64,000 bases of DNA from Patiria pectinifera (taxonomy: Eukaryota > Echinodermata > Asteroidea > Valvatida > Asterinidae): NCBI GenBank assembly GCA_029964075.1, contig CM057135.1:3829001-3893000 (forward strand), in the 5' to 3' direction. Under the pieces are notes generated by a model. The model was not told the origin of the DNA. It searched no databases and saw only the letters and a list, made by a program, of their open reading frames with translations. Shown here piece by piece: positions 393 through 23,822 of the stretch. Position 1 is the stretch's first letter. Every line of letters starts with the position of its first letter. The translations under genes and the position numbers were made by a program.

Positions 393-400
393 TTTTAAAA

Positions 401-1582
401 TTAAAAGATCTCCAACTCGATAATGATACCCTCACCCTTATTGTTGAACACCTGTCCTTTTTCACCGCTGATAGAAAATGTCAGTTTGTCGATTATACCG
501 TTTTTAAGTTTTTTGAAATCCTCGACTCTATCAGGCTGGGGTTCGCGCGTAGCCACGGGTACGATTTTTAAGATGTCAGAAGGACGACCATTAAAAAAGT
601 TTTCACTCGTACTTAATTGCAGGCAGCGAATAAAGTAAAATTTAAACGGATTAACGTCGTAATACCCCGTATACACCACTTTGGGTACCAGTCTTCCTTT
701 GGGTAAATTGAGTAATCGAGATACTTCTCTGTTCAAGCGCAATTTGAGATTTACGTCGGTTATCACCAACGTCACCTTTTTAGATTCTCTAAATATTCGA
801 AAACTTACCCCGGGTATAGAATTTAAAATGAAATTGAACCAATCGACGTCGTACCACCCCGGCGGTATGATGACCGAACCGGTGACTCCGAGTGGCAACG
901 GCTCTAAATGACTCGGAGGAATAAAATCGAAATCATCACCCGTCACGATAAGACTTCCTCTTATAATCACCCCTGCTTCTCTACTATCTCTCAACTCGCT
1001 CAACTCGCTTGCACCCATATCTCCTTCAATAAACTTTAAAGCCAATTCCTCACCTTCAAAGATTTTTCTTTCTCTAACAAATAATATTCTTACTAAAGAT
1101 TGAAGCGTATTAAGTTCTAATTCAGTTTTTGGTATTTCTGAATTCATGGCGGCTAAAATCAACCCTCGCCGTTCAGCTATAATACCTCTTTTTCTTTTGT
1201 TTGATTCTAAAACGGATTCTAGTCTATCGTCTTCGTACGCTTTTATAAGATCGTTTATAGTTTTTTGTAAAACATTTTCATCGTTAAATAAATAGTGGTA
1301 TGGTATATCGGGTAACAATCGCTCTATAAACTCTCTATCCGGCGTTGCTATGTGTACATCTGAAAGAAACTCCGCGGGTATGAGGGGAGGTTTATCTGTG
1401 GTAAACGCGGGTCTCCCATCTATTTGCGTAAACCAATCAATCTCCGTGGCGCTGGAAATATTAAAATATCCGGCGTTAAACAACACCCTTTTTACGCGTA
1501 TAGATTTTTGACCGTTTAAATTATCTACGACGTCTTCTAATTTAAACGTCTGCTCATTTTGAAACAAGTGAAACGAATGCAT
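401..1582 (-). CDS. Polinton 393-aa beta-rich protein, possible penton/fibre-like (copy A)
   Basis: Intact 393-codon frame from ATG to TAA. The N-terminal ~65 residues (FQNEQTFKLEDV...) and the C-terminal ~190 residues (GSVIIPPGWYDVDWFN; RIFRESKKVTLVI; a Thr/Ser/Pro-rich region; end IIIELEIF) are rich in alternating hydrophobics as in a beta-sandwich. Residues ~70-205 are a charged helical insert. Proteins with this N- and C-terminal pattern recur in Polintons, where a minor capsid (penton-like) or fibre role is plausible, but I cannot prove a jelly roll by eye. Copy B (15911-16979) is a broken homologue; copy C has lost the gene by deletion. It is transcribed divergently from the + gene at 1626. 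One of the few undamaged genes of copy A. Confidence 0.65.
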   Translation of the reverse strand: MHSFHLFQNEQTFKLEDVVDNLNGQKSIRVKRVLFNAGYFNISSATEIDWFTQIDGRPAFTTDKPPLIPAEFLSDVHIATPDREFIERLLPDIPYHYLFNDENVLQKTINDLIKAYEDDRLESVLESNKRKRGIIAERRGLILAAMNSEIPKTELELNTLQSLVRILFVRERKIFEGEELALKFIEGDMGASELSELRDSREAGVIIRGSLIVTGDDFDFIPPSHLEPLPLGVTGSVIIPPGWYDVDWFNFILNSIPGVSFRIFRESKKVTLVITDVNLKLRLNREVSRLLNLPKGRLVPKVVYTGYYDVNPFKFYFIRCLQLSTSENFFNGRPSDILKIVPVATREPQPDRVEDFKKLKNGIIDKLTFSISGEKGQVFNNKGEGIIIELEIF

Positions 1583-4582: not shown

Positions 4583-4600
4583 CGTTTTTAATATAACAAT
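4583..4600 (-). promoter_or_regulatory. Polinton promoter box before the 80-aa gene
   Basis: Minus strand reads TTATATTAAAAACG immediately before ATG; copy C keeps it at 57603-57616. Same box as at 375-392 and 16988-17004. Confidence 0.5.
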
Positions 4601-4614
4601 TTTTAAATTGCTGT

Positions 4615-5461: not shown

Positions 5462-5810
5462 TTAATTAGAAACGAATTTAATTTTGTTGTAGCTTTTGCA
5501 ACTTTGTTACAAAAGCAAAGGTATTCGTAGGTGTAAAACGATAAATTAAGCGAAATGATGATAATAGCCAAAACTGCATATACTCAAATATTGCTATCAT
5601 TTACTAACAGCCAAATGTATTTTGTTGACGTTTGTTGATTAACAAATTGTAATACACGTGTAGTTTGTTGAATAGGTTGCTACTAAGCTAGGTCCTATTA
5701 GTTAAGCAGCTAGGTAATTTAACTTGAGCACGTAGCTTAATTTAGTTAAGCACCTAGATTTATTTAGTTAAGCACCTAGCTTAATTTAGTTAAGCAGTTA
5801 GGTTATTAAC
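5462..5810. other. Largest non-coding gap inside Polinton copy A
   Basis: About 350 bp between the 3' end of the ATPase gene and the 5' end of the 192-aa gene. It is AT-rich, has no convincing frame, and its left edge next to the 192-aa gene should hold that gene's promoter. The right third is a 22-bp tandem repeat described separately. Copy C has lost the whole region. Confidence 0.6.
5701..5810. repeat. Five 22-bp iterons beside the ATPase gene
   Basis: Units begin at 5701, 5723, 5745, 5767 and 5789, an exact 22-bp period, consensus GTTAAGCACCTAGCTTAATTTA. Each unit holds the dyad TTAAGC...GCTTAA or a variant. The last unit runs into the ATPase stop region. Such phased dyads could bind a protein (origin, regulator or packaging signal), but this is inference. 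Confidence 0.75.
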
Positions 5811-6416
5811 CTACTCAAGTAGCTTGTAACTAACTGGAGGTTCGGTGTATACGACCAATTTACTATATTTCACATCTCTCAAACGTCGTTTTATATAATC
5901 TCGTTCTTCAATGGGTACGACGTCATTTTCGTCTAACGCTTGATCAAACGATGTTTTATCTTTGCAGTAAAATAACGCCAACCAAGCCGTGTTTTCTCTA
6001 TAATCTTTTAAACCGCTGTTGTACTTTTGGGTCAGTAACCAACAGCTGTGATTTACGTGTCTTCCGCTAAATGCCATTTTGCTTAAAGCGCACGTCTTTT
6101 TACGATATTTAATCTCTTGATCCGAAGAGCAATCGTCCACGATAAACAACGTGGCAACACCTTCAAATATTTTCCTGTAAAAATCGATCGCTTCGTTGAG
6201 CGTCATCTTGTACAATTCCGGATCGCAGAGGTATACCTCGGGATCTGCTTGAATCCACTTTCTTTCGATGTACGTTTTGTTTTTAAATATGGTAGGACAA
6301 ATGATGACTATCGCTTCAAATGTGTTTTTATAGTCTGACTCTAACAGATCCAAAATCCATTTGGTTTTGCCCGAATTTGTTTTGCCGACGATTAAAGCGC
6401 AATGCGGTTGTGTCAT
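5811..6416 (-). CDS. ATP: FtsK/HerA-type genome-packaging ATPase (copy A)
   Basis: Intact 201-codon frame. Walker A is GKTNSGKT at residues 11-18 and Walker B is TLFIVDD at 89-95, followed by a Gln/Asn-type sensor region (CWLLTQKYN) as in A32-like packaging ATPases of Polintons, adintoviruses and other PRD1-adenovirus-lineage viruses. It would drive DNA into the capsid. It sits just downstream of the capsid gene (32-nt gap), the usual structural cluster. Length is normal for the family. The copy C version has lost most of Walker A. Confidence 0.9.
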   Translation of the reverse strand: MTQPHCALIVGKTNSGKTKWILDLLESDYKNTFEAIVIICPTIFKNKTYIERKWIQADPEVYLCDPELYKMTLNEAIDFYRKIFEGVATLFIVDDCSSDQEIKYRKKTCALSKMAFSGRHVNHSCWLLTQKYNSGLKDYRENTAWLALFYCKDKTSFDQALDENDVVPIEERDYIKRRLRDVKYSKLVVYTEPPVSYKLLE

Positions 6417-6447
6417 TTTAACTTAACAGAGATTTAAAATTCCCGAC

Positions 6448-7626
6448 TTACAAGTTCAATTGAGCATCGATGACTAAAAATACGTACATCGTGAGGTCAC
6501 CTTGACTTTCGGCTTCTCTGTTAAATTGAATGTTGATGCCTCCTCCGTCTCCGAGTTTCCTACCGGATCCGTGAGCGGAATTGTCGTCGTTACTTCTAAA
6601 ATCGAGCCACAGACCGTACTTGTCTTTTAGGTAGTCTCCGAGGTCAAAACCCGTCAAATTTAAGTCTTTAGCTACTTCGCGCCCGCTTTCTCTATCGTAG
6701 AGTTGATTGGGTTTACCTTCTACGGTCACCGATGCTTTGGTTATTTTTGGATTGTAAAATCGCTGCGAATTTTTGACCGCGGGATCTTTAAACAAAAACA
6801 AAATACCCTTGAGACTCCTGATGGGTTGATTGACGCTGACGTTCCAAAGCATGTCCGATTTGTTGACGGATCTAACTTCTAGCGAGTGGATTTTATCAAA
6901 CAGATATTGCATTAACCCCTTGTGTTTATTCCTGATGGTGATAGCTAGGTCTCTGTTGGTCACCACTTCGTATTCGAGAGACAAGTCTGAGATAGAATAC
7001 ATCGCCGCCGTATCTGAACTGCTGACTACTTTATCGTGATCGTTAAACTTTATCTCGTACGTCAGAGGTTGGTTTAAACTGCTGGGGTAAAAAGGGTGAT
7101 GCGAAGTCAGTATGTCAATGTCTAGGGGAATACAATATCTGTTACCATAGGCATCCGCGATAGCTTGATCCTTACCGTTGTTGGCGCCCGCGTTAGCATC
7201 TTCAGCCCCAGTTCTTAGTTTAGACACATTTTGTTTTTCTATGCCCGAGTACGCCATGTTTCGAGTCATCGAGCTGTTGAGCCAATTGTCTTTAAAGTTG
7301 TGATACACGTCGGCGTGACGATAACTTATAATTTCGTGACCTTGAAGCCTGACGCTGATTTCGCTGACTAAATTTCTGGCCAAATTGATAAAAATGGTTC
7401 TATTGTTGTCACTTCCACCGTCGAGTTCTAAATTGAAAGCTAGTTTACAAGTGCCGGGTACGATCACGTCGTCTACACCCAATTGAAGAAACTTGACCCT
7501 CAGCGTTTGCCCTGCCGATATACTACTAGGATTGTGGGTAATGACCACCTCTTTTCTCTCACCCTTGATAGATCTTGGTATTTTTAATAGCCTGCTGGGG
7601 TTGAGCTTTTTTCCATACGCAATCAT
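6448..7626 (-). CDS. MCP: Polinton major capsid protein, double jelly-roll type (copy A)
   Basis: Intact 392-codon frame. Features seen: N-terminal basic segment (KKLNPSRLLKIPRSIKGERK), beta-rich N-terminal domain (VPGTCKLAFNLEL; ISVRLQGHEIISYRHADVY), QPIRSLKGILFLF in the middle, and the C-terminal block LWLDFRSNDDNSAHGSGR followed by LTMYVFLVIDAQLNL. This order and the C-terminal block resemble Polinton and adintovirus hexon-like capsid proteins. Copy C has about 21 more residues after KPNQLY, so copy A has an in-frame deletion there; whether it could still fold is unknown. It lies between the small coiled-coil membrane protein gene and the ATPase. Confidence 0.8.
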   Translation of the reverse strand: MIAYGKKLNPSRLLKIPRSIKGERKEVVITHNPSSISAGQTLRVKFLQLGVDDVIVPGTCKLAFNLELDGGSDNNRTIFINLARNLVSEISVRLQGHEIISYRHADVYHNFKDNWLNSSMTRNMAYSGIEKQNVSKLRTGAEDANAGANNGKDQAIADAYGNRYCIPLDIDILTSHHPFYPSSLNQPLTYEIKFNDHDKVVSSSDTAAMYSISDLSLEYEVVTNRDLAITIRNKHKGLMQYLFDKIHSLEVRSVNKSDMLWNVSVNQPIRSLKGILFLFKDPAVKNSQRFYNPKITKASVTVEGKPNQLYDRESGREVAKDLNLTGFDLGDYLKDKYGLWLDFRSNDDNSAHGSGRKLGDGGGINIQFNREAESQGDLTMYVFLVIDAQLNL

Positions 7627-7648
7627 TTTATTTATACGAGTTTTAAAT

Positions 7649-8077
7649 TTAAAGATATTTGTAAGCCAATAGACCCACCAATAGCGTTCCTCCCGTGATA
7701 AACGCCAGTTCTCTTTCTATTTGTTGGTCACTAGGTTCGTAAAAATCTTCGAGTTTGGGTTCGCGTTGCAGTCCTACGGGTAGTTCGGTAGATTGACCAC
7801 TCACCTCGTTGTAGTAACGCAACGCTCGGTCTACGTTAGAAAATGTTTCTTTAGAGGCATTTTGTTTTCTGATACGTTCGTTTAGAAAATCTAGATATTT
7901 CGTTCGTTCTCGTTGCCACTTATCTTTGGCGGCTGAGAGTTGTTCTATCGCTAAATCGTGTCTCTTACGCTCCTCGTCGGCATCACTCTGTTTCAGACTT
8001 GAAAAGAAAAAGTTTGAACCCGTAAAAGCTAAGGCGTTGACGATCGCGCCTCCTAACATCATAGCAACGCTAGCCAT
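7649..8077 (-). CDS. Polinton small coiled-coil membrane protein, 142 aa (copy A)
   Basis: Intact frame. N-terminal hydrophobic segment (VAMMLGGAIVNALAFTGSNF), central coiled coil (ERKRHDLAIEQLSAAKDKWQ and onward through LDFLNERIRKQN, residues ~37-75), PKLEDFYEPSDQQ near 108-120, and a C-terminal membrane span (LAFITGGTLLVGLLAYKYL). The combination GG..VNALAF.GSN...F + ERKRHDLA.E.L + DFY.PS is a very conserved Polinton signature. Role unknown; a capsid-associated membrane protein is inferred from its place directly upstream of the capsid gene. Transcribed divergently from the integrase across a 34-bp gap. Confidence 0.75.
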   Translation of the reverse strand: MASVAMMLGGAIVNALAFTGSNFFFSSLKQSDADEERKRHDLAIEQLSAAKDKWQRERTKYLDFLNERIRKQNASKETFSNVDRALRYYNEVSGQSTELPVGLQREPKLEDFYEPSDQQIERELAFITGGTLLVGLLAYKYL

Positions 8078-8111
8078 ATTATTATTATAAACGTCTTTTA
8101 TATTAAATAAA
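8078..8111. promoter_or_regulatory. Bidirectional Polinton promoter, structural genes / integrase
   Basis: A 34-bp gap between divergent ATG codons contains CTTTTATATTAAATAAA just before the integrase start. Same box class as 1583-1625. In copy C a 535-bp element has inserted beside this gap. Confidence 0.55.
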
Positions 8112-9037
8112 ATGCAAACATTATCTAAACTGTATTATAGACCGAGTGGTTATTGGAGAGGTGAAAGCGCCGTCGAGCATTTACACGATAAAACCAAAAT
8201 CGATAAAAAGGTAATCAGAGATTGGCTTAAAAAAACCAAGCGATATGGCAAATTTATCTACCGGGTCCTGCGTATGTACCCAGGCCTACGAGTACTTCGC
8301 GAGAGTTTGAAACACCAAACGACTTTCACCAAATGGATGTGCTATACCTACCCTGGGATAAAGTAAAACGCAAGACTTATAAATACGCTTTGACGGTTGT
8401 CGACGTTGCGAATCGATACCACGAAGCAGAACCTTTGGTTTCTAAAACGGCGGATTCCACGCGGGATGCTATCGTCAAGATTTACGCGAGATCGCCTTTG
8501 AGTTACCCTAAAACGTTGAGAGTAGACGCCGGTACCGAATTTAAAGGCGCTTTTAAAAAATGGATGGCCTCAAAAATCGTCGAGATTATCGTCGGCGAAC
8601 CCGGAAACCACCGATCGCAGGGTATCGTAGAAAGATTTAATCGAACGCTAGCCGAGAGACTGTTTGGTCATCACTACGTAACCAAAGCTATAAACGATGA
8701 AACGACGAGATTAATAGCTAAAGCGCCGTCAGAGGCGGTTAAACTAAAACAGGTCCGGCAATCGCCGGCTAACCCCGTTAAAACAAAAGAGCAACAATTA
8801 CCGCAAGACGCCATGGTTAGATATTTATATTACCCGGGCGAGCAAGAGGGTGGAACTGCGAGAAGAGCCACATCTCCTATTTGGAGCGTAGACATCTTCA
8901 ACGTGAAAAAAAGAACGAGTCAATTTAAAATGATTAACGGTAAAAAAGTCACGACGGGTCCTACTCTTTATTACCTGCAAGAGTTTTGTGAGACAAGAGC
9001 TTCAAGTCGTACCCGAGGACACGCAATTACCGCCTAA
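8112..9037 (+). pseudogene. INT: Retroviral-type (rve) integrase of Polinton copy A, frameshifted
   Basis: Two overlapping frames: N-terminal 8112-8366 and the rest from about 8333 to 9037, so a frameshift lies between about 8236 and 8333. Catalytic DDE residues are visible: Asp in the MDVLYLPWD block, Asp in RVDAGTEFKG, and Glu in GIVERFNR 35 residues later. The region before shows a zinc-binding-like N-terminal helix (VEHLHDKTKIDKKVIRDWL). Compared with copy C, about 23 codons are missing in frame after ERLFGH. The C-terminal part keeps IWSVDIFNVKKR and LYYLQEF, a likely DNA-binding SH3/chromo-like tail. It would insert the element with short target duplications. Its TAA (9035-9037) abuts the polymerase stop on the other strand. 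Confidence 0.85.
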
Positions 9038-12000
9038 TTAATAATCTAGATTACGGTGACCATAACCGAGCGTGTGTATTCCATCCGGTAAAATGTACCT
9101 CTTTGTGTCCAACGGACTCAACGATAGTTTATTTTGAGATACGGTGTAAAGGATGTGATTTTCTGATCTAATGTGAGTCATGGTTTCGTAATGAGATTTC
9201 TTGTTTAAGATGCAGTCGTAATAGTGTCGGTGTTTTAATTTCTTAGAGGTGACCGATTTTGTGACACCCTTGGCTTTTTTTCAAGTTGATGTCAGCGGTT
9301 AAAATCGAGTACATTTTAGGTCTTATACAAACGACTTCTTTGATTATTTTACCTCCAAACTCGTCTTTAAATTTACCGATCACTTTCTTATTGGTTGGAT
9401 CGTACAAAGGATGATCCGTCGGAAAATTCGAAAGGTCGTATTGTTGCCCGTTTTGCTGCATATCTTTGTATACGTCGTATGTGTGCACTACGAGTACCAA
9501 ACTGTGTGTATCTGTGTACATCAAGCTGATTTTCTCTTTGTACTTGTCTTTCAAATGGTTGTTAGATCCAAGATACTCACTCCGCAATAGATCGGTTTGT
9601 TTAACACGGTTTTAGTCTTGTACATTTCGACAAATGACAACTCACATTCTTTAAAGATCGATGTCTGTTTGTAGTTTGTTTTTAGACACAATCATTTTGT
9701 ATCTTTTATGCTCATCCTCTCTGAGTAACTTTGCGTCCATTCTATTACTAACGTCTTCCATCGTTTTTCCAAAAACGCTATTATTCATGAGTTTAAAGAA
9801 ATCTTTTTTCAAAGTTAAAAGTCGCTTTAGTTCTGAGTTGAGTGTTTTTATCGATGTACGACTTCATCCAAGGCTTCTGTTTAAACCCCAAGACGCGATG
9901 TACTTTTTTGAGTTTTAATCCGAGCTTGATATAAAGCTGTAAAGTGACGTAGTGCAAAACGTACTTGCGTTTGGGTTTTAGCGTGCCGGTTAATTTGGGT
10001 ACTTTGCTACTAGGTTCGGTATCCAATAACTCGTTTTGATAATCAGACATCCATTCTTGTGGTATGATTATGTTTTCTGGCGCTAGTGGGTAATCGTTGT
10101 ACCAATCGTGAAGAGCAGCTGGATAATCGAGGTCTACCTCTAAGAAATAGCCCGAATCTGACGTTTTATCAATCGACATGATATACTCGGTATTGAATTC
10201 CTTGTTCTTTAACCACTTAAAATCTTTGTACGGCAAGTACTGACTCATAGCCCAACCGTATAGGTTATTAGCGTCTAGATAGGTCACGTAACTCGTTGGT
10301 TTATCCGGATCGTGGTCGGGCAGATATTTATTGTTTGTTTTGTGATATCTCGCGCTACCGACGCTCGACATGCCTCCTCGTTTCGCTCTCTCAAAAATAA
10401 ATGTTTGTCTACGTCTTGCAATAGTTCGAGTTATATCTGAGAGTGTTTTAACAGTGCATCCCACGATAACCCGGGTGCGGTAAAATAATTAGCCGGATGT
10501 AACTTATAATTCTTTTTACACACGCGTCTAAAATTCTCAAACACGCCGGCTAGTAATAACGTGTCGGTAGTCACGTACAAGTCGTGATATTCGCCCAAGT
10601 TTTTTACCTTAAACTCTTTCCACACTCGTCGAGCTCTGTCATAGTCTTCTCGCGATATCCCTTCGTCTTTTTAGACTGCTGTAAAACTTTTCGATTGGTG
10701 GTAGACTGGTCTCTTCAAATTTATCAAACGAGTCCATATATTCGTAAGGGTAAACTCCTTTTTGTAGTAAAAGGTCTAAACTCTCTGGCGAATTTTTAAA
10801 ATGTTTTCTCAGTAAAGTAAACGACTCTTTTGGACAAGCTTTGACTAAGTTGTCAAGCGATGCGCCATAAAATTGAACGAGTCTATAAATCGTAGATTTC
10901 CGATTGAAAACGAAATGTACTTTCCTGAATTTCTAGGGATACACTTTATATTACCTTTGCAAACAGAGATGCCTTGCATGATCAAATGCGCGTCGTAATT
11001 TTGTAAATTGTGTAATATGACCGGTATCGTAGTACAACCGGGTTTAACACGTAGCTTGGTGTTACAGTAGGCGTGCGCGGCACCTCTATATCTACCCGTG
11101 ACGTGGCAGTGATCTCTCACCTTTCTAAATTTGTTGATTTTCTTTTTGCATTCGAGACATTTAGACTCGATAAATCCATTTTTGTTTTCGTACTGATGTT
11201 CTTTTATTTGTTTTTCTGTTTTTGGTTTTTTGGGTTTCTGGCATTGACAGTTGCTCGAGTAATTGGGATAAATTGGTTTCTCGCAAATCCAACACGTGTC
11301 TGCTTTTTCATGATGTTTTTTTTTATCTCGCTCAGTAAATTCCATGGGTATGGGATTAGCAACTATGCAATTAATATCTCGTTGTAATTGTAACATCTGC
11401 TCTACAAACTTAGTTGTGGCGTCTTTGCCCCTGTAAGTTTCTCCATACATATTTTTACCATCACATCTAACGACTACCAACGAATAACCGCTTGCTTTGT
11501 GAATGTTGGTCTTTTGCGTGTTTTCCTTTTTATCGTGCTGAGTTTTTTTCTAGTACCGATTCAAAGTCGGCGTAAATGACAAATGGTGCGTCCTGTGCAA
11601 ATCTGTGGTTTTTAAATTTTAATACGTTGTTCTCAGGGAAAACGATTTTAGACGGAGGTTTGTCTATTCCCTCACAATCTTGTTTGTGTCTGTCTAGTTT
11701 TTCTTGCGTTCCGAAGTTTGACAGACATCTTCATCAAAAATATTTCTTGTGTCGATCAGCCGTTGCAGTATAAAATAATCTAGAAAATTGTTTTATCCAA
11801 CAGTAGTGACTCTTATCACCGTTGGAAAACAACAACAGATCGATAGCCTCAACGGTAGGATCTGTGTTTTTAGATAATGCCAATACATGTATGTTATCTT
11901 GTTCAGTATAACCAAAAACATTTTTTGACAGATAATTTTGTCTTTCTACCCTAGACATTTGATCCACTAGTGTGGGAAAGTCTATATTTTCGAATTTCAA

Positions 12001-13305
12001 TCCATCGTTCGTGTTGTATATCGTAGTTCTCTCTTCATGGACATATTTTGGGTTGTTTTCGATTCGCTGTTTTACTTTGTCCGAATATTTACCAAGAGCG
12101 GCCCTCAAACACCATCTCAAACATTCGTTGTCTTTGTTTTGTACGTTGATAATCGCCCTTTCATTTTTGAGATAGTCGGGTAGCTCTATGTAAGAACTAC
12201 CTCCTGCTTGAGCATAACGGTTTACGTTAATGTAAAACGCGAGTATTTTATCGGCTACCCAACCTGATCCTCGATTTGTATGACTCGCGTGTTTTTCTTT
12301 TACTTGATCGATCGCTTCTTTAAGAATTTGCTTTACCTGACTCTCCCTCAAAATAACCACATTGTTACTGGTAAAGGTACATTCAGCAGTCACCCGTTCT
12401 CCATCAGGTACATTTTTAACGTATCTCACTGTAATCGCAATCTGAACCTTTATGTTAGTGAGTTCTCTCAGTTCTCATACGACTTTGCTTTCGATCTGTC
12501 GCTCGTGAGTGCGAAAAAAACAGTTCAACGTCATTATTAAACTGTCTCGGAATCAGTTCTCAGTTTCGAAAGTTATTTCTAAACCTTCTCGTATCTCTGA
12601 AGTCAGCCTCTTGAAAATCTTCGGGAGATTTAAATCTCTTGATCGCTGAGAATAAATCTTTTTTTCAAAAATCGACCATTAGGCCAAAAAAAAAAAAGTC
12701 TCCGGTTTCTGGTATGCGCGCGCGTCGCCGTAGCCATGCGCGTCGGCAAAATGAAAAAGTTTTTTTTTCAATGAAAGATGATGTCTCAAAACCGCCAAAC
12801 TCACTGGTTTGACTGGAATTCTGCTGCTGCGCAATTTCAACGTGTTTTTAGATGGGGTTATGATCGAGAATAAGCTTTATGTGGCCTCTCTGGACTCCCA
12901 TATATTTGCACTAAGTTTAGTCGGGCACCATTTGCAGTCATCAGCCGACATTTGAAGCACATTTGAAGCAAAAAAGTCGGGTAAAAAAAAAAAAAAAGCC
13001 GCGTCGCCGCACCACTTTTTGGACAAGCTCCATACCAGAAACCGGAGACTTTTTTTTTTGGCCTTATAACCCGTCGGTACGTATTCTGGATTGTGTTCAT
13101 CTACAATCTGTTTGAGCTCACGTAGTGTCTTTTTCCTCAAGTTTTTAAATTTACTCTCTTCAGCCTTTATGGCTTGAATATAGTCTCGACGGGTATAATT
13201 TTCTCGTTCGTCGATCACTATATTATTTTGATCAACGTAACTCTTCAATGCAGCTTTAACCCACCGCGAATAGCCTTTAGGTGATGGCTTTGAGTTGGTC
13301 TCCAT
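9038..13305 (-). pseudogene. pPolB: Protein-primed DNA polymerase B of Polinton copy A, heavily broken
   Basis: Pieces in order from the 5' end at 13305: N-terminal segment, MITE (12682-13063), a frameshifted stretch, then 12429-11734 (GSGWVADKIL; NKDNECLRW), a double TGA at 11731-11736 inside a Cys/His region, exonuclease motif I (YADFE, near 11560-11580), 11480-10845 with a Cys-rich/HNH-like part (VRDHCHVTGRYRGAAHAYCN) and Exo II (NLQNYDAHLIM), Exo III (NLGEYHDLYVTTD, 10625-10431), polymerase motif A (LDANNLYGWAMSQYLP, 10464-9793), and motif C at 9501-9518, which reads YTDTHS rather than the catalytic YTDTDS. The C-terminal end (SPLDTKRYILPDG...LGYGHR) stops at 9038-9040. At least six frame breaks are present. 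Replicates the element by protein priming when intact. Confidence 0.88.
12682..13063. mobile_element. Harbinger-like MITE inserted in the polymerase gene
   Basis: A 382-bp element with ~34-bp terminal inverted repeats (GGCC, A-run, GTCTCCGGTTTCTGGTATG). It is flanked by TTA at 12679-12681 and 13064-13066, a 3-bp TWA-type duplication as made by PIF/Harbinger transposases. No coding capacity of its own. It splits the N-terminal part of polymerase B. Confidence 0.8.
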
Positions 13306-13863: not shown

Positions 13864-15235
13864 TATATAAGTAGACAAATGAACAGCCCTGCCATTCAAC
13901 AGACATTCTACCCAGCAGATAGACGTTCATCAGCCTAGCAGCATCAACAACTGCAGTAAAAAATACAGAGCAGTAATATCTACACTTGTTTTAATCAAGC
14001 AACCCCCACTGAAAAGGTAAACTATAAGCTATGTTTTTTACTAAAATTTTTAATAAAAGTGTGCGAGGGAGCTGTACAGTACGTAACAAAGTTTTAAAGT
14101 GAACTTTTAACTGTTTAAATTATTTTTATTTTTTCAGATCCTAAAAGAGGAATTGATCGAGACACCAGCAATCCAAACAAGTTGCCTGCACCATCAAAAG
14201 GTAAACATAAATATTCACCCTTGACTAGTGTGGTATATTTCCCGTAAATTGTATAAAAGGTACTCGCAATAATCAGAAGAAAACGACAACATTTTGCAGT
14301 AGCGCGTACAAGACTCACGTTCCACACAACAACCTTTTACAATTTCAACCCTGGAAGGCGCTATCACACAAATGCATGTCGACTAGATTTTTGAGGGATA
14401 TGAGCAGTTTTAAAGCACACAACAATTTTTTTGTAAATAACTTTCAACTTTTTAGTATTTGTATTTTTTCCGATACAACAGCAATCATGGCTACTATTTG
14501 TAACAAAAGGTTGTCTGAATACTGCGTCAAAATTACCATTTCATAAAAAGGATGAAAATATATATATGCCACTATATTTATTATTTTTTCGTTCTGTCTT
14601 TTTTAGAAACACTATGGAGATTTCAAGGCAGACCATTGGCATAACTCACGTTGAGGAGGCTAACGAAATCATTAGAACTAGTGATGACATCATGCTTACG
14701 AATTGAATTTGTTTAACAAAGAGAAGGGAAGTGGCAATTCCCTTTTATCAATAGAACTAGTGATGACATCATGCTTATGAATACAATTTGTTTAACAAAG
14801 AAAAGGGAAGCAGTACTTCCCTTTTATCAATAGAACTAGTGATGACATCATGCTTATGAATAAAATTTGTTCAACAAAGAAAAGGGAAGCAGTACTTCCC
14901 TTTTATCAATAGAACTAGTGATGACATCATGCTTATGAATAAAATTTGTTTAACAAAGAAAAGGGAAGCAATACTTCCCTTTTATCAATAGAACTAGTGA
15001 TGAAATCATGCTTATGAATAAAATTTGTTTAACAAAGAAAAGGGAAGCAATACTTCCCTTTTATCAATAGAACTAGTGATGACATCATGCTTATGAATAA
15101 AATTTGTTTAACAAAGAAAAGGGAAGCAGTACTTCCTTTTAGTTCAATATAACTCTGACATCATTTCTGATCTATATTTATTATATTATATGTTGTTAAA
15201 GTTATATGTTTTAATAAAGTAAAAAACCCAGACAT
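13864..15235 (+). other. Candidate spliced transcription unit, probably non-coding or decayed
   Basis: Signals in order: TATATAA at 13864-13870; donor AAAAG|GTAAAC at 14017; pyrimidine-rich acceptor ending AG at 14136-14137; a 63-nt exon; donor AAAAG|GTAAAC at 14201; acceptor TTTTTTAG at 14605-14606; a last exon that runs into six 79-bp repeats; and AATAAA at 15213-15218 followed by GT-rich sequence. Exons 2 and 3 join with an open frame of 36 codons ending at a stop, but I find no upstream ATG in that frame. It may be a non-coding transcript or a gene whose first exon has decayed. All inferred from consensus splice sites only. Confidence 0.35.
14674..15147 (+). repeat. Six 79-bp tandem repeats with internal hairpin
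   Basis: Unit starts at 14674, 14753, 14832, 14911, 14990 and 15069 (exact 79-bp spacing). Each unit holds the dyad AAAGGGAAG...CTTCCCTTT around a short loop and the sequence GATGACATCATGC, itself nearly palindromic. The units lie in the inferred last exon upstream of AATAAA. Confidence 0.85.
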
Positions 15236-15605: not shown

Positions 15606-15866
15606 CTATCGTATTCGCCAACCGCCCTTATTAAAGATGTACGAGATACCCAAACCGTTAGATTTTGTGTCTCTCGTCTGTTTAAAAGACTTGGTATTAT
15701 TAACTATGACCTCCAGTTCAGTGGGTTTAGTGTTGTTTAAAAACATTGCCTGGGATGCAGCTTGATGCGTTAGTCCGGTTGCCTTGGCTACATTTTGATT
15801 AACTTGTTTCGTTACCTGATCAGCTATACCTAGTATCTGCTTTTTTAACGACTCAAAATCACTCAT
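15606..15866 (-). pseudogene. 5' part of the Polinton structural-type gene (copy B)
   Basis: Homologous to the start of the gene at 1626-2975 but in opposite window orientation. About 60 N-terminal codons (IADQVTKQVNQNVAKATG) are joined, by a deletion of roughly 115 codons at a shared ACCAAG, to the later SFKQTRDTKSNGLG segment. After about 15640 homology to Polinton stops. It defines one broken edge of copy B. Confidence 0.7.
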
Positions 15867-15910
15867 TATTTTAGTTTCAGTTTTAATATAAAAAAAAGAC
15901 TTTTAAATCA
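15867..15910. promoter_or_regulatory. Bidirectional Polinton promoter (copy B)
   Basis: Gap between divergent starts containing GTTTTAATATAAAAA, matching 1583-1625 of copy A in inverted orientation. Confidence 0.5.
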
Positions 15911-16979
15911 ATGCATTTGATTCACTTGTTTCAAAATGAGCAGACTTTTAAATTAGAAGACGTTGTAGATAATTTAAACGGTCAAAAATCTGTACGCGTA
16001 AAAAGGGTGATGTTTAACCCTGGATATTTTAATATTTCCAGCGCCACAGAGATTGATTGGTTTACGCATATAGATGGGAGACCAGCTAAAAAAACGTGAT
16101 GACTCTATAAGACCTAGTAAACTCGACTCAGATGCGTTAATAACAACGGATAGAGATTTGATCGCGCGATTGGTACCCGAGTACCCCTACGACTTTTTAA
16201 TTAACGACGAACATGATTTCAATAGAGTTACAAACGACCTTATAGAAGCGTACGAAGAAGATAGACTAGACTCTGCTTTACAATCGATCCAGGAAAAAAA
16301 CAAATCAAATAAGTGACGCACATGAACTTGTGTACAATAAAAAACGAGAAGCTACCCTAAACAGTGTAGAACGCAATACGCTTATATTTTTATTAAGAAA
16401 TTTATATGAAAGATACCATCAAATCTCTGAAGGTAAAAAGATAGCTCTAGAATATATCGAAGGTAGAATAAGCAAATTAGAGAAGCGGGGATAATCGCCG
16501 GTTCGGTCACCATACCACCGGGGTGGTAGCACGTCGATTGGTTTGATTTCATTTTAAATACTATACCCGGGGTAAGTTTTCGAATATTTAGAGAATCTAA
16601 AAAGGTGACGTTGGTGGTAACCGACGTGAAACTCAAATTGGGTTTAAACAAAGAAGTCTCTCGCTTACTCAATTGATCCAAAGGAAGACTGGTACCCAAA
16701 GTGGTGTATACGGGGTCTTACAACGTTAATCCGTTTAAATTTTTGTTTATTCGCTGCCCGCAATTAAGTACGAGTGAAAATGTCCTCGATGGTCGACCTT
16801 CTGATATCTTGAAAATCGTACCCGTGGGTACGCGCGAACCCGAGCCTGATCCAGTCGAGGGCTTCAAAAAACTTAAAAACGGTATAATCGACAAAATGAC
16901 ATTTTCAATCATAGGTGAAAAAGGACAGATCATCAACAACAAGGGTGTGAGTATAATGATAGAGTTGGAGATCTTTTAA
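15911..16979 (+). pseudogene. Polinton 393-aa-type beta-rich protein (copy B), broken
   Basis: Starts with ATG and matches copy A for ~58 residues, then breaks near 16085. The helical insert survives in other frames (IARLVPEYPYDFLINDE; EEDRLDSALQS). A deletion near 16485 removes the junction to the beta-rich C-terminal half. In-frame stops occur after PPGW (about 16528) and at TGA in the AATTGATCC context (about 16674). The end (IMIELEIF) at 16979 is intact. The acidic/helical insert is more divergent from copy A than the flanks. Confidence 0.75.
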
Positions 16980-16987
16980 TTTTAAAA

Positions 16988-17120
16988 TCGTTTTATATTA
17001 AAAACATGAGTATAGATAGGAAGGTATTATAACCCGATATTTCTGGAGTTGTACTTCGATTAAATAGTAACGAAGAAACAAAAGTGTACAGACTTAAAAA
17101 GATTGAAGAGATTCGATCTA
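16988..17120 (+). pseudogene. 5' part of the Polinton conserved membrane protein (copy B), with promoter box
   Basis: TTTTATATTAAAAAC is followed at once by ATG (start about 17005), confirming where this gene begins. The frame has TAA where copy A has TAC (codon 9), then continues as the basic helix RLKKIEEIRS. At about 17120 homology stops at the insertion of a chimeric retrotransposed segment; it resumes at 21085. Confidence 0.65.
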
Positions 17121-17126
17121 TACAGT

Positions 17127-17228
17127 ACAAAGAAGTCTCTCGATTACTCAATTTACCCAAAGGAAGACTGGTACCCAAAGTGGTGTATACGGGGTCTTAC
17201 AACGTTAATCCGTTTAAATTTTTGTTTA
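17127..17228 (+). repeat. 102-bp duplicate of the Polinton 393-aa-type gene
   Basis: Corresponds to 16648-16749 with no length change, same orientation. It differs at three positions; at those it matches copy A, and it lacks the in-frame TGA of the neighbouring copy. It therefore appears to come from an undamaged copy rather than from local tandem duplication. It lies at the left border of the inserted chimera. Confidence 0.8.
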
Positions 17229-17640
17229 ACGTCTGGGTTGTGGCACTTGTCACCGGCGTGTTGGGTGGACTCGCATTTGATTACAATTATGTCAGGAATT
17301 TGGTTTTCAATCAAGCTTATGTCATTATCCTTCTCCTGATGTGTCTGGCTACGTTTACCACAACTGTTACTGCGTATATTTACATCGTTATTAAGTTATG
17401 CCACAGTGACCGAGAGCGTCAAGCAGGCCAAACCCGTCGAGTTTACCCCGTCGTCCGCATGCTGGTCATCAACACTGCTGTCTTCTTCGTCCTCAATTCA
17501 ATGGACATCGCATTCAGTGTCATCAGCCTTGTACTCCTGTTCTCCACGCACTCTGGAGCAGAAGCTGTCGTCGATTTGTACTGGACCGGTCTCGACGTAG
17601 CGGTCTGCACAGCAATCTTTTGCCTCATCAACATCGGACT
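17229..17640 (+). pseudogene. GPCR-like fragment (four membrane segments, TM4-TM7-like)
   Basis: An open frame of ~137 codons fused in frame to the preceding Polinton patch. Four hydrophobic segments are visible: VWVVALVTGVLGGLAF; AYVIILLLMCLATFTTTVTA followed by YIYIVIKL; MLVINTAVFFVLNSMDIAF and on; and LYWTGLDVAVCTAIFCLINI. The loop between the second and third is short and basic (ERQAGQTRR), as in the third intracellular loop of class A GPCRs. The last segment ends CLINIG, without a clear NPxxY. No introns, no start. Probably a captured host receptor mRNA fragment; the family cannot be named. Confidence 0.5.
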
Positions 17641-17651
17641 AAGTGATCAAA

Positions 17652-20600
17652 ATGGCCGTCAGCACGTCACTCATTCTTGCTCTCCGAACTTTGTTTTGGT
17701 TGTCATCTCTCTACGGTGCCACTGATTTTGTGACAGCCCACAATGATCATGAGGACTTTCTAGATCACAGTGGAGCCACCCTGGTGATATCATATGATGG
17801 ACTTCACCTCAAACTGGCAAACTTTGTTCTCCGTGATGTTCATGGATATGGCTTGCCATTATCAGGTACTGACATCTACCGCTTAATAAGTAAGGAGAAT
17901 TTCAAGCACTTCAACCGGCCTCATGGTCTCATTTACTTACTATTGCATGGGCTGATTGTCTCTGGAGATATTGAACTAAACCCAGGTCCTAACCCCTTAG
18001 GCTTGTCAAGATCACCGATCTCATTTTCGGCCAAAAATGGTAAAAATATAACCAGTCTTTTGTGCAACGCCCGAAGCATTCGGAACAAGGCCAACAGCTT
18101 CTTTCCCATTAACATGCAAATACCCTGCCCGACATCCTATTCTTCACGGAGACATGGTTGTCAAGTCATGACAACGAGAGTATTCTTGGGCTACCAGACG
18201 ATTATGTAATCCTGAGAAAAGACCGTCGCCACGGACGCCGCGGTGGTGGTGTCATAGCAGCTGTCAACGCCTCCCTTGTGCCGCGCAGACTCGACCACCT
18301 TGAACATGAGGACATCGAGTTGATGTGGATATCTGTCAGTCTGTCATCAGAATCCTGGCTGATCGGCATCCTTTATCGTCCACCATCATCGACTGCTCTG
18401 TACTGGCCGAAACTCCATGACGCACTCATATCTGCCAACATGGAGGACTTCGACGGTTGCCTTATTTTGGGCGACTTTAACGTTGATGTCAACCCTCTCT
18501 GTCAGTCTAGCCCAAATCGTACAAGACTATGTGAAATTACCTCGGAATTTTTCCTGGAGCAGCTTGTTACATCAGTGACCCATCCCTCAAGTAGGGAAAA
18601 CCTATCAGTTGGCTCTACAATTGATGTGGTTTTCAGCAATCGTCCTGACAGAATTGCTTCAGTAAGCACTGCCCAGCCGTCCTCCGTTCTTTCCTTCAAT
18701 TCCACCGTGGTGACTTTGACCACTTAGGGATGTTGATCCATCTTCTACCGTGGTCAGCTTTCATGGATCAGGCCGACGTCAACTCTTCTGCAGACATCTT
18801 CACCGACCTGCTGGACGCCGCCATACGGGACTCCATTCCTGCATCGGTCAGACGTAGATCCCGTTTCTCACCATGGATGACGCCTGAACTGAAGAAACTA
18901 ATTAACAAAAAACACCGGTTATTCAGACTTGCTCGCCGATCAGGCTCTCCAAGTGACTGGATATTGTACAAAAGGGTTCGTAATGACGTTAACAATCAAA
19001 CACAGAAAGCTTACTGGCAATTTGTTGATGACATGTTTGCTTCCCAAGACAATAGGCGTAGATTTTGGTCTTTTGTCCGAATTTGGAAACATTTACCTTC
19101 TCCCCCTGCATTTAACCACAATGGTGTCCATCTCACTCAGCCTGCTGCCATTTCTGCTGCATTTAATGATTATTTCTCCTCCGTGTTTAACCCATCAGGT
19201 TTTATTCCTGAAAACCCATCGCCCTGTCCTTTACCCATCCCTGAGTTAACAGATCTTTTTGTGTCGGATGGCCAAATAATATCCATTCTCAAAAACCTAC
19301 CTGTCAATAAATCTCCTGGCCCTGATGGTATCCTACCTAGGATTTTGAATAAGATTGCAGTGCACGTTTCTCATCCATTGTGTTTGCTGTTTAACTCATC
19401 TCTCCGCTATGGTAAAATTCCCGATGCCTGGCGGTGTGCTAACATCACTCCTGTGTTTAAAAAGGTGATAAGTCTATCCTGGCAAATTATAGGCCGGTTG
19501 CTCTCACGTCAGTCTTGTGCAAAGTACTAGAGCGAGTCGTTGCATCGGCCTTAACCGATCACACAGATATGTTAGGCTTACTAAACAGCAATCAACATTA
19601 CAAAACGTCGTAGCTGTGTAACCCAACTTGTTAACGTTTTGCACCAGTGGGCGTCTGCCCTCGACCAACCACGCCTTCCCCGTGTTGACGCTGTTTTCCT
19701 CGACATGTCTAAGGCATTTGACAGGATGCCGCACGGTGTCCTGCTTGAGAAACTGGCCTCACGTTTTAACATCCGGGGCACCGTGTGGCATTGGGTCAGA
19801 TCCTTCTTAACAAACCGTAGACAGCGTGTGATATTACAGGGTAGTGCTTCGTCTTGGGCAGATGTTTCCTCTGGTGTCCCACAAGGGAGTGTTCTAGGTC
19901 CTACTTTGTTCAATTTATTTGTTAATGACATTTCTGACAGTGTTTCTTCTAGATGTGTTATGTTTGCTGATGATGCGCTGCTTTTTCGTGTTATCCAGTC
20001 ACAAGTGGACGAACATCATCTTCAGACTGATCTTAATCACCTTCTTCATTGGTCATTGTGTAATCACATGGCTTTTAATCCTTCCAAAACAAAGGTTATG
20101 TACATTACTCGAAGTAGAAATATTCATGCTCCTACTTATAATCTTGGTAATTCCCCTTTAGCCGCTTCCTCATCCGTTCAGTACCTAGGTATCACTATTA
20201 CCCCCAAACTAAGCTGGAATTCCCATGTTAATGTCATTGTTTCTCCTGCCAATCGCCTCTTAGGTTTTATCCGATCAGTTGCTGGAGGTTCATCCTGTCT
20301 AAATCGCTTGTCCTACCTGTCCTCGAATATGGTATCCCTTGCTGGGGCCCGCACACGCTTATCACAAGAACAACAGATTGAGCGTGTGCAACGTTCAGCA
20401 ACCCGAATTGCCCTAAAACAACGGCGAGGTCAGATGTCATATGAGGACAGGCTTGACCGGCTTAACTGGTTCTCCTTATCATCCAGAAGACAATACTTAC
20501 TATGCTCCTTTGTGTTTAAATGTTTACACGGTTTATGCCAATGTGAGACCATCAGTGACAACATCCTAATCAACCCACGCCACCCAGATGTGGTTACATT

Positions 20601-20763
20601 CCGCCATCTTCATTCACGCACACAAGCTTTGTTTCATTCCCCCACCCGCAGTTTCCCTAGAATATGGAATTCTTTGCCGCCTCATGTCAAAGACTCAGCT
20701 GTTGTCGACTCCCTTCCTCGATTCCTTAGGGCCCTCAAGCAGGCATTCTTATCGATAACTTAA
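17652..20763 (+). pseudogene. Retrotransposon polyprotein (2A, APE endonuclease, reverse transcriptase)
   Basis: ATG at 17652 begins a hydrophobic leader (MAVSTSLILALRTLFWLSSL). The 2A-like site follows after ~105 codons, then the endonuclease start (LLCNARSIRNKANSF). A frameshift near 18125-18160 separates this from the rest of the endonuclease (ETWL region in the alternative frame; GILYRPPSS; ILGDFNVDVNP). A stop or shift near 18727 precedes the RT: SPGPDGILPRIL, then frame disruption at 19470-19640, then FLDMSKAFDRMPH (motif A), SGVPQGSVLGP (motif B), FADDALLF (motif C), and a C-terminal domain ending at 20763. At least three lesions; dead copy. Confidence 0.8.
17964..17990 (+). other. 2A-like ribosome-skipping motif
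   Basis: Encodes GDIELNPGP, matching the D-x-E-x-NPG|P core. It is preceded by a Leu-rich stretch (GLIYLLLHGLIVS) as in active 2A peptides. 2A-like sequences are known from APE-type non-LTR retrotransposons of marine invertebrates. It would release the leader from the endonuclease/RT. Confidence 0.85.
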
Positions 20764-21084
20764 CTCAACCCATTGCTCTCTTTTTTTGGCTGTCATTTTG
20801 ATCACCCCTGCGGGGCCGTTGTTTTCTATGCTTGTAATCTGTATTTTCAACGTTATGTGCGGGGCTGCATAACCGCGGGTAATAGTAGTTCATTTTACTT
20901 TTGCGATCCCTGACCCACATAACTGTCATTTGTCTTGTCATGTATTCGGATATTTGTCCCAGGTCCTCGCTACCGTCTTACTGTACTTGTTGTTTTATGC
21001 TCGTTTTACTCAATTTTGTTTTGTTTTGTTTTTGTGATGGTCGAATAAATAATAATAAATATTAATAATAATAATATAATCTTA

Positions 21085-21552
21085 AAAGAGAGAGACCACC
21101 GAGAGCGCACTTATAAAAAAATAAAGAGAATAATCGACACTATTATTTACGTAGAGCTGGGATTAGAAGGATTGGGTGCTATAGTGGCGACTGTCGGTAT
21201 TCCCGCTCTCTTGGGTGTTATATCAGCCCTGTTGGATTGGTGTTAGAAGGAACGTTTATAGGCGCTTTTGGTGTAGATATTCTGCTTAGAATCGCGTCTA
21301 AGCGATTGTCTGCCAAGCTGAAAAAGCACGACCAGATTAAAATATTAGCGGACTCCAAACTTAACACGATGAAGAATACGTGTCTCAAGCCATCAACGAC
21401 GGAGATATATCGCACGAAGAGTTTGTATTGATTACGAGAGAGCTCGCAAAATTTAACGAGCTTAAAGAAAAAATTGGAACAAAGACCAGCACAAAGCTTC
21501 CAAAAAATAAAAACGATTCAGACTTTGAAAAAGAAGTTAAAAAATTACGTGG
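21085..21552 (+). pseudogene. 3' part of the Polinton conserved membrane protein (copy B)
   Basis: Continues the gene interrupted at 17120, reading RERTYKK and then MIDT-equivalent at 21130 (ATG changed to ATA). The hydrophobic pair follows. One nucleotide is missing in the run at about 21227 and another indel is near 21370, shifting the frame twice. The helical C-terminal part (AINDGDISHEEFVLITREL) is readable to about 21550, where homology to copy C ends, giving the other edge of copy B. Confidence 0.75.
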
Positions 21553-22547: not shown

Positions 22548-23150
22548 ATGGCTGATTCTGATGACAGCAATTTGAGAAGCTCGAGGCTCTGGCAAACTGG
22601 ACGAGTGGACTACCGGCTGGTGAACAGTGGACCATCTTTGCCAACGGATCGGGTAGGCCTACCGAAAAAGTCTTGGTCAACAACTAAACTTTACAGTTTG
22701 GTGGTGGTGGACTCTAAATTTGTTCAAGACAAACTTTTTGTAAAGGACCACTACACAGATGAGGAATGGAAATCTGCAGAATACGATGAATGGCGGCCAG
22801 CTGATGCAATAATTGACATTCCCAACTGCTTTGTGGAAAGTACTCCGGAGGGAAGGGCCTTCTTTGTGGAGCAGCTCAAGATTTCCATCAAGGAGTCACT
22901 CCATGGCCAACGCAAAGTTGACAGTATTATGAACATTGAATTGCCAATCGAGAGAGAGTTGTTTGACGAAATTGCGTCGCTTGGGAAACTTACGGAATCC
23001 CATCAATTCCATTTGGAACTTTTGACGGCCTTTAACTCTCTTTTGAGTCGTTTGGAGTCGTTTGGAGTCGTTTGGAGTCGTTTGGAGTCGTTTGGAGTCG
23101 TTTGGAGTCGTTTTGTGAGTCGTTTTGTGAGTCGTTTTGAGTCGTTTTGA
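22548..23150 (+). CDS. Tudor-knot/chromo-barrel-like gene exon running into a minisatellite
   Basis: From ATG at 22548 (just after an AG acceptor-like site) the frame encodes ~200 residues. A Tudor-knot or chromo-barrel-like signature is visible in VKDHYTDEEWKSAEYDEWRP (HY...YDEWRPA). It is followed by a helical region (FFVEQLKISIKESL) and IELPIERELFDEIASLG, a combination I associate with multi-copy invertebrate proteins of unknown function. From about 23041 the frame is made only of the GAGTCGTTT minisatellite and ends at a stop in it, so the normal C-terminus is missing. Likely a host or transposon-borne gene fragment; chromatin binding is only suggested. Confidence 0.45.
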   Translation: MADSDDSNLRSSRLWQTGRVDYRLVNSGPSLPTDRVGLPKKSWSTTKLYSLVVVDSKFVQDKLFVKDHYTDEEWKSAEYDEWRPADAIIDIPNCFVESTPEGRAFFVEQLKISIKESLHGQRKVDSIMNIELPIERELFDEIASLGKLTESHQFHLELLTAFNSLLSRLESFGVVWSRLESFGVVWSRFVSRFVSRFESF

Positions 23151-23742
23151 GTCGTTTTGAGTCGTTTTGAGTCGTTTTGAGTCGTTTTGAGTCGTTTTGA
23201 GTCGTTTTGAGTCGTTTTGAGTCGTTTTGAGTCGTTTTGAGTCGTTTTGAGTCGTTTTGAGTCGTTTTGAGTCGTTTTGAGTCGTTTTGAGTCGTTTTGA
23301 GTCGTTTTGAGTCGTTTTGAGTCGTTTTGAGTCGTTTTGAGTCGTTTTGAGTCGTTTTGAGTCGTTTTGAGTCGTTTTGAGTCGTTTTGAGTCGTTTTGA
23401 GTCGTTTTGAGTCGTTTTGAGTCGTTTTGAGTCGTTTTTTGAGTCGTTTTGAGTCGTTTTGAGTCGTTTGAGTCGTTTTGAGTTGTTTTGTGAGTCGTTT
23501 GAGTCGTTTTGAGTCGTTTTGTGAGTCGTTTTTTGAGTCGTTTTGAGTCGTTTTGAGTCGTTTTGAGTCGTTTTGAGTCGTTTTGAGTCGTTTTGAGTCG
23601 TTTTGAGTCGTTTTGAGTCGTTTTGAGTCGTTTTGAGTCGTTTTGAGTCGTTTTGAGTCGTTTTGAGTCGTTTTGAGTCGTTTTGAGTCGTTTTGAGTCG
23701 TTTTGAGTCGTTTTGAGTCGTTTTGAGTCGTTTTGAGTCGTA
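23041..23742. repeat. 10-bp GAGTCGTTTT minisatellite
   Basis: About 700 bp and some 70 units of GAGTCGTTTT, with 9-mer, 14-mer and 11-mer variants near 23045-23110, 23435-23475 and 23495-23535. Because 3 units make 30 bp, each strand is open in frame; the minus strand encodes a KRLKTTQNDS decapeptide repeat with no sign of being a real protein. Confidence 0.95.
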
Positions 23743-23761
23743 TGGGTCACGAATGAGTAGT

Positions 23762-23770
23762 TATATAAAA
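23762..23770 (+). promoter_or_regulatory. TATA box of the zinc-finger gene
   Basis: TATATAAAA lies 53 bp upstream of the ATG at 23823 and only 20 bp after the minisatellite. The spacing gives a plausible 5' UTR of about 25 nt. Confidence 0.55.
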
Positions 23771-23822
23771 ACCGAATTCATCCGTTTCTTGTCATTTAGA
23801 GACTTACCTTCAAAGATTCAAC

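What the first reader, a model, noticed from the sequence alone, without database searches (positions are those of the whole stretch)
17121..21075. Tripartite chimeric insertion: Polinton patch + GPCR-like fragment + 2A non-LTR retrotransposon
The Polinton membrane-protein gene is interrupted after GATTCGATCT and resumes at AATCTTAAAAG. Between lie, all in the same sense orientation, a 102-bp piece of the Polinton 393-aa gene, ~410 bp of intronless GPCR-like coding sequence, and a near full-length non-LTR element. The 102-bp patch matches the undamaged version (copy A) at all three sites where it differs from the adjacent copy B gene, and lacks that copy's TGA. This is what template switching of the retrotransposon RT from its own RNA to a receptor mRNA and then to a Polinton mRNA would leave. 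If right, it is a fossil that Polinton genes were transcribed in the germ line and captured with host mRNA.
Basis: partly seen in the sequence, partly recalled or inferred. Interest (0 to 1): 0.8.

Follow-up and report, generated by a model that had tools for sequence, protein, structure and literature searches.

The report
Composite retrotransposon insertion in starfish Polinton
In a starfish genome, one jumping gene landed inside a dead virus-like element carrying a scrap of a receptor gene and, most likely, a short copy of the DNA next to its own landing site; it is a neat fossil of messy copy-and-paste, but not proof that the virus-like genes were active.

Summary
The structure is real. 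In a starfish genome (GPCR matches are all Patiria miniata), a relic Polinton copy (B) is split by a 3.96-kb insert: 4-7 unmatched nt, a 102-bp Polinton patch, 1 nt, 404 bp of class A GPCR coding sequence, 9 nt, and a full-length CR1/L2-like non-LTR element with a 2A motif, all in one sense. The GPCR piece is not part of the element: two other copies start at the same base with unrelated flanks. No second compound was found. One event, about 1.2% divergence ago, is the best reading.

'Intronless' says nothing: the GPCR paralogues read are single-exon. And the patch is not best explained by an intact Polinton's mRNA. It matches B against A at six sites, carries a rare B base (2 or 3 of 43 other sequences), and equals B at 13 of 13 variable sites (0 of 43 others do). 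Its three differences from B are B-only. The likeliest source is B itself, about 370 bp away: a local templated duplication. One distant copy fits equally well by count. GPCR capture by template switching is plausible; RNA origin is unproven. Chimeric LINE insertions are known.

The parts
15691..17119 (+). Polinton copy B, part left of the insert: relic of the 393-aa gene and the start of the next (membrane-protein) gene
   Evidence: two stretches match copy A reversed: 16495-17119 at 89% and 15691-16285 at 83%
16648..16749 (+). most likely source of the 102-bp patch, in copy B's own 393-aa gene relic
   Evidence: 99/102 identical to the patch; shares the rare base at 16651 and 13 of 13 family-variable sites
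17120..17126 (+). 7 nt ATACAGT at the left junction; the first 3 may be target sequence (copy L028 reads GATCTATAATCTT here)
17127..17228 (+). 102-bp Polinton patch, direct orientation, second copy of 16648-16749
17229..17229 (+). 1 unmatched nt (A) between patch and GPCR piece
   Evidence: alignment to GPCR paralogues and to copy B
17230..17633 (+). class A GPCR gene fragment, TM4 region to just before the end of TM7 (helix names are from general knowledge); open reading frame, no stop
17634..17642 (+). 9 unmatched nt TCGGACTAA between GPCR piece and element
17643..21076 (+). full-length but decayed CR1/L2-like non-LTR retrotransposon ending in an AAT-rich repeat tail
   Evidence: 5' end shared with copies on C20 and C12; 3' end shared with three fetched copies
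17964..17990 (+). 2A (StopGo) motif GDIELNPGP after a hydrophobic N-terminal leader
   Evidence: sequence; motif -D(V/I)ExNPGP- as given in PMC4981915 (passages)
18113..18727 (+). APE-type endonuclease domain (below Pfam cut-off)
   Evidence: PF14529 E=1e-5, 25.8 bits, cut-off 27.4
19585..20763 (+). reverse transcriptase domain
   Evidence: PF00078 E=2.7e-25
21077..21544 (+). Polinton copy B, part right of the insert
   Evidence: 21077-21340 is 92% to copy A 1-265 reversed; 21103-21544 is 90% to copy C 54566-55002 reversed
631..732 (-). the same 102-bp stretch in Polinton copy A (6 differences from the patch)

Best explanation
One retrotransposition event by a CR1/L2-like 2A element left a compound insert in an already resident Polinton copy B. 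Target-primed reverse transcription started at the right-hand flank (AAT-rich tail against TAATCTT) and ran to the very 5' end of the element RNA. The growing cDNA then gained a 404-nt GPCR segment with 9 unmatched nt at the joint. The 5' end was finally joined to the left flank through a 102-nt copy of copy B's own sequence from about 370 bp upstream, with 1 and 4-7 unmatched nt. Shown: the anatomy, the common 5' end of the element, no second place with the compound in the searches made, the B-type haplotype of the patch, and an insert younger than copy B. Inferred: a single event, copying of the patch from the copy B locus, and template switching for the GPCR piece. Whether the GPCR template was RNA or DNA cannot be told, and neither can whether the RT or a repair polymerase made the patch. 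The odds given for rivals overlap with this statement (local RNA as template; 5' transduction plus local patch).
For: Element: its first 500 nt match four places; of the three others, the two that keep a 5' end start at the same base (17643) with unrelated flanks, the third is 5'-truncated. Uniqueness: the 422-bp GPCR probe matches 29 places and the next best after the window's own is 85%; the three other places with this element's 5' part (C20, C12, C4) are on none of the contigs with GPCR matches (C8, C22, C738). Single event: the insert's right end meets the Polinton site with at most about one base lost, and 25 of 29 other copies show that site uninterrupted. An element landing exactly at the edge of an earlier insert would be a coincidence. 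Patch source: patch vs B 3/102, vs A 6/102. Base A at 16651 is in patch and B and in 2 of 43 other distinct sequences (a third, L029, has it in the gapped alignments). Patch equals B at 13 of 13 other variable sites; 0 of 43 others match at all 13, the best eight at 12. B's three differences are unique to B. Timing: window-private changes in the element 35/2999 (1.2%); B-private changes 41/1589 (2.6%). About 1 post-insertion change each in patch and source is expected; 0 and 3 are seen.
Against: By raw count three other places are nearer to the patch than B is (2 differences: C7:9229735, C7:2020924, C7:494588); none of these has the 16651 base. One other copy, L077 (C7:3213138), fits as well as B does: it has the same base and 3 differences. 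It is no special relative of B (shares 2 of 34 B-rare states). The key base is only the 4th of the patch, near the filler. Only 43 distinct sequences, from at least 489 candidate places, were read; three loci were dropped for gaps. A genome-wide count of the base was asked for but did not complete. The three changes in B against none in the patch are somewhat lopsided. At 102 nt the patch is long for an end-joining templated insertion (generally <25 bp; PMC12426944, passages). The GPCR parent was not found. There is no clear target-site duplication; the two other full-length copies show none either.
Confidence: 0.6

Rival explanations
1. One reading: the reverse transcriptase jumped from its own RNA to a GPCR mRNA and then to an mRNA of an intact, germ-line-transcribed Polinton.
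For: All three pieces share one sense; the element is complete at its 5' end; tripartite LINE chimeras by double template switch are reported (PMC2104539, abstract and section 8).
Against: Patch haplotype is that of copy B next door, not A; the GPCR paralogues read are single-exon so lack of introns is uninformative; the GPCR piece is internal to its gene. Of 43 other sequences only one (L077) carries the rare base and differs from the patch by no more than B does.
Confidence: 0.15
2. The patch is a copy of RNA transcribed from the target locus itself (copy B), captured during target-primed reverse transcription.
For: Same sense as the element, B haplotype, close to the break.
Against: No transcript evidence could be examined; DNA of the same locus is an equally good template.
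Confidence: 0.1
3. 5' transduction: a source element sat in or behind a GPCR gene, was transcribed with upstream GPCR sequence, and the read-through RNA was retrotransposed here; only the patch arose locally.
For: GPCR piece in sense orientation at the element's 5' end; LINE-1/mRNA 5' chimeras are reported as fusion transcripts (PMC13174262, section 13).
Against: The three other places with this element's 5' part are on contigs without GPCR matches; 9 unmatched nt lie at the joint; the source locus would have to be lost or unassembled.
Confidence: 0.15
4. Stepwise: a break in copy B was patched with local and GPCR DNA first; the element inserted later exactly at the right edge.
For: Patchwork repair with local templates is well described (PMC12426944, passages).
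Against: Needs the element, complete at its 5' end, to land exactly at the boundary with Polinton sequence; no intermediate was seen.
Confidence: 0.08
5. Assembly error joining unrelated sequences.
For: The compound was found once; reads could not be examined.
Against: Four different junctions with no long shared sequence, in a 44.9-Mb contig; the flanks continue the same Polinton copy.
Confidence: 0.03

Closest known systems
Tripartite LINE chimeras made by double template switching (WEIRD/Mg-SINE/MGL in Magnaporthe grisea; B2/U6/L1 in mouse) - PMC2104539
   Same: Three pieces with the LINE at the 3' end, one integration
   Different: Those join three RNA-derived pieces and carry direct repeats of 14-16 bp; here the outer piece is most likely a local duplicate of the target's surroundings and no clear duplication is seen
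LINE-1 / mRNA 5' chimeras - PMC13174262
   Same: Gene sequence fused in sense to the 5' end of a near full-length LINE
   Different: 15 of the 17 human cases map to the beginning of the transcript and six end at splice donors; here the GPCR piece is internal, its paralogues are single-exon where read, and it meets the element after 9 unmatched nt
Templated insertions at break repair (polymerase theta end joining) - PMC12426944
   Same: Short copies of flanking sequence plus a few unmatched nt at a joint
   Different: Generally <25 bp; here 102 bp, at the 5' junction of a retrotransposon
2A-bearing non-LTR elements / 2A-like signal sequences of echinoderms - PMC4981915
   Same: N-terminal hydrophobic leader ending in D(V/I)ExNPGP
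   Different: The assays in the passages seen are on sea urchin NLR sequences; recoding was not tested here

Membership tests
CR1/L2-like APE-type non-LTR retrotransposon | reverse transcriptase domain | tested here: met
   PF00078 E=2.7e-25, 89.7 bits
CR1/L2-like APE-type non-LTR retrotransposon | APE-type endonuclease domain | tested here: inconclusive
   PF14529 E=1e-5 and PF03372 E=7e-5, both just under the curated cut-off in this decayed copy
CR1/L2-like APE-type non-LTR retrotransposon | short-repeat 3' tail, no poly(A) | tested here: met
   AAT-rich tails in window and in L015, L016, L017
CR1/L2-like APE-type non-LTR retrotransposon | phylogenetic place of the RT in CR1/L2 | not tested
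   clade name is recalled from tail and layout; no tree was made
2A-bearing element | D(V/I)ExNPGP near the N-terminus | tested here: met
   GDIELNPGP at 17964-17990
LINE chimera by template switching | 5' piece absent from other copies of the element | tested here: met
   2 of 2 other copies with a 5' end lack it
LINE chimera by template switching | all pieces in the sense of the element | tested here: met
LINE chimera by template switching | 5' piece shows RNA origin (spliced, or ends at transcript end) | tested here: inconclusive
   GPCR paralogues read are single-exon; piece is internal
LINE chimera by template switching | one target-site duplication around the whole compound | tested here: inconclusive
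   none, or up to about 3 nt; the two other full-length copies also lack a clear one
Locally templated insertion | inserted copy matches the flank better than other genomic copies | tested here: inconclusive
   by haplotype met: B at 13 of 13 variable sites plus a rare base, 0 of 43 others at all 13; by raw count not: three places have fewer differences and L077 ties
Processed pseudogene of a Polinton or GPCR gene | poly(A) tail or lost introns | tested here: not met
   no tail between pieces; no introns to lose in the GPCR paralogues read

The most novel reading that the evidence does not exclude
The element's reverse transcriptase, having run off its own RNA, switched to a GPCR transcript and then to a nascent transcript (or the displaced strand) of its own target locus. 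It would thus have written local target sequence into its 5' junction as a routine way of closing the insertion; such self-locus duplicates would be a general signature of CR1-type integration.
Probability: 0.15. Interest if true: 0.55.

Novelty: new member of a known kind. Interest (0 to 1): 0.33.

Why it matters
It is a well-preserved, datable example of how a non-LTR element can bring a host gene piece and, most likely, a local duplicate into one locus of an animal genome. It also corrects a tempting inference: with a local source available, a Polinton fragment beside a retrotransposon is not evidence of Polinton transcription.

Tried and rejected
Patch from copy A: rejected as best reading because of the six A differences and the B haplotype. 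GPCR as part of the element: rejected. 'Not a GPCR': Pfam gave only sub-threshold hits such as claudin and Jagunal, but the protein search gave 11 of 11 Patiria GPCRs. Old decayed GPCR relic: not favoured; the fragment has 11 private changes in 396 shared columns, within the 7-16 of five paralogues (the near-identical L004 and L006 were left out), and dN/dS against five paralogues of 0.73-1.17, like theirs to each other (0.61-1.29). Templates for the fillers: none convincing; a 9-mer across the left filler also occurs reversed in the GPCR piece, which is not clearly beyond chance by my rough estimate. Search of the element's 188-aa leader frame for protein relatives: 114 candidates, nothing at E <= 1 (whole element proteins are outside its length range). 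PDB sequence search of the GPCR piece: nothing up to E=10. The 393-aa Polinton protein gave two unnamed proteins at 40% and 35% identity (7999 best candidates scored), not used. Rfam and tRNA scans of the window: nothing. Paper searches for Polinton with non-LTR and template switching (one unrelated paper), with echinoderm, germline and transcription (one unrelated), with sea star (none) found nothing on this case; some searches were seen as listings except for the papers named in the report; PMC2837659 was seen in passages only and is not relied on.
Full report
What the window is. The window lies at C7:3829001-3893000 of a 613.5-Mb assembly in 1020 contigs. The tool names no species, but all 11 protein matches of the receptor piece are Patiria miniata, so a bat star or close relative is likely. 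The window holds three related Polinton copies: A (about 1-12500, minus strand), B (a fragment, 15691-17119 and 21077-~21544, plus strand) and C (54566-63853). The finding concerns the insert in B.

Anatomy. Copy B reads on to ...GATTCGATCT at 17119 and resumes with TAATCTTAAAAG at 21077. The same site is uninterrupted in copy A and in 25 of 29 other Polinton loci. In 22 of these 25 one base lies between the two flanks, in two (L025, L047) three bases, in one (L042) none. Of the other four, L020 and L044 have the left flank but diverge on the right, and L039 and L045 gave no flank match at the threshold. The insert is: ATACAGT (17120-17126), a 102-bp Polinton patch (17127-17228), one A, 404 bp of GPCR sequence (17230-17633), TCGGACTAA (17634-17642), and a retrotransposon from 17643 to an AAT-rich tail ending at about 21076. 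L028 reads GATCTATAATCTTAAAAG at the empty site, so up to three of the first seven nt may be target.

The retrotransposon. Its first 500 nt match four places (five rows). Copies on C20 and C12 begin at exactly the base 17643, with flanks unrelated to each other and to the window, except that both have a G just before it; a copy on C4 is 5'-truncated. So the element is complete at its 5' end and the GPCR piece does not belong to it. Its last 441 nt match 41 rows from 61 candidates (40 scored), many of them short. It has an RT domain (PF00078, E=2.7e-25), an endonuclease match just under the cut-off, and GDIELNPGP after a hydrophobic leader; the motif D(V/I)ExNPGP is described in PMC4981915 (passages). 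Reading frames are broken in several places. Among four aligned copies, 35 of 2999 shared columns are changed in the window copy only (1.2%). That it is CR1/L2-like is recalled from its layout and tail; no tree was made.

The receptor piece. It aligns to class A GPCRs from the TM4 region to just before the end of TM7 (helix names recalled). In the genome it matches 28 other places on C8, C22 and C738, best 85%. In the seven fetched paralogues the genes are uninterrupted reading frames: 344-393 aa in six, and 287 aa from the first in-frame ATG in L008. The lack of introns in the piece is therefore no sign of an mRNA. The piece has no stop and looks like an intact paralogue: 11 private changes in 396 columns against 7-16 in five others. 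With an insert age near 1.2% the true parent should be about 97-99% identical (my estimate); none was found. It may be lost, polymorphic or unassembled. This is unexplained.

The patch. Copy B differs from the patch at 3 of 102 sites, copy A at 6. I compared the patch with the same stretch in the other loci: 57 loci, of which three with gaps (L032, L036, L042) were dropped and those identical over 300 bp upstream plus the patch were merged, leaving 42, plus copy A, 43 in all. Base A at 16651 is in the patch, in B, and in 2 of 43 (L030, L077); in gapped alignments L029 has it too. At 13 other variable sites the patch equals B at 13; 0 of 43 others match at all, the best eight at 12. The three differences from B are at sites where B differs from all 43. 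Hence the patch has the B haplotype before B's three own changes. Against this: three places have only two differences from the patch, all lacking the 16651 base; and L077 has that base and three differences of its own, so it fits as well as B by count. L077 is not a close relative of B: 2 of 34 covered B-rare states are shared, against 4 of 38 for L028. Distance decides: B's stretch ends about 370 bp left of the break, on the same strand. The 43 come from at least 489 candidate places and were chosen for likeness to B or to the patch.

Dates. At sites where at least 90% of the other copies agree, B carries 41 own changes in 1589 (2.6%), more than the 1.2% of the element. The insert thus came after B had settled. 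About 45% of B's own changes should then postdate the insert; of its four in the 102-bp stretch, three do, which is unremarkable (my estimate).

How it probably happened. Reverse transcription primed at the right flank, ran to the end of the element's RNA, and the cDNA gained the GPCR stretch, then a stretch of the local Polinton, before the left joint was made. Double template switches are reported for LINEs (PMC2104539, outline, abstract and section 8), and LINE-1 chimeras with mRNAs, 15 of 17 in sense orientation, for human (PMC13174262, outline, abstract and section 13). Small copies of flanking sequence are a mark of polymerase-theta end joining, generally under 25 bp (PMC12426944, passages), so 102 bp points rather to the RT or to longer repair synthesis. 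Which enzyme made it, and whether the GPCR template was RNA, cannot be told from sequence.

Verdict. A real compound insertion, found once, best read as a known kind of event with a locally templated patch. The claim that it shows germ-line Polinton mRNA does not stand on this evidence, though it is not excluded.

Noticed in passing
G000 contig C7 (the window's contig): The Polinton family is very large (489-516 candidate places) and the best-scoring copies cluster on C7, chiefly its first 14 Mb: 30 of 41 rows and 27 of 40 (each count includes copy B and the patch), though C7 is about 7% of the assembly. Rows were ranked by likeness to this copy, so part of this may be kinship; a recombination-poor or sex-linked region is worth testing.
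   Followed up: partly
C8, C22 and C738 of G000: A clustered, expanded family of class A GPCR genes, single-exon where read; names given by the source range from somatostatin to opioid receptor-like.
   Followed up: partly
window 54991-55002: Polinton copy C lacks the stretch holding the 393-aa gene: its match to copy A jumps from A 239 to A 1839.
   Followed up: no
window 22896-23777: A 10-bp tandem array with three minus-strand frames open (NDSKRLKTTQ repeats), near copy B.
   Followed up: no
window 40995-41664: A 30-bp tandem array, G-rich on the plus strand.
   Followed up: no
window 14589-15219: A 79-bp tandem array between Polinton copies A and B.
   Followed up: no
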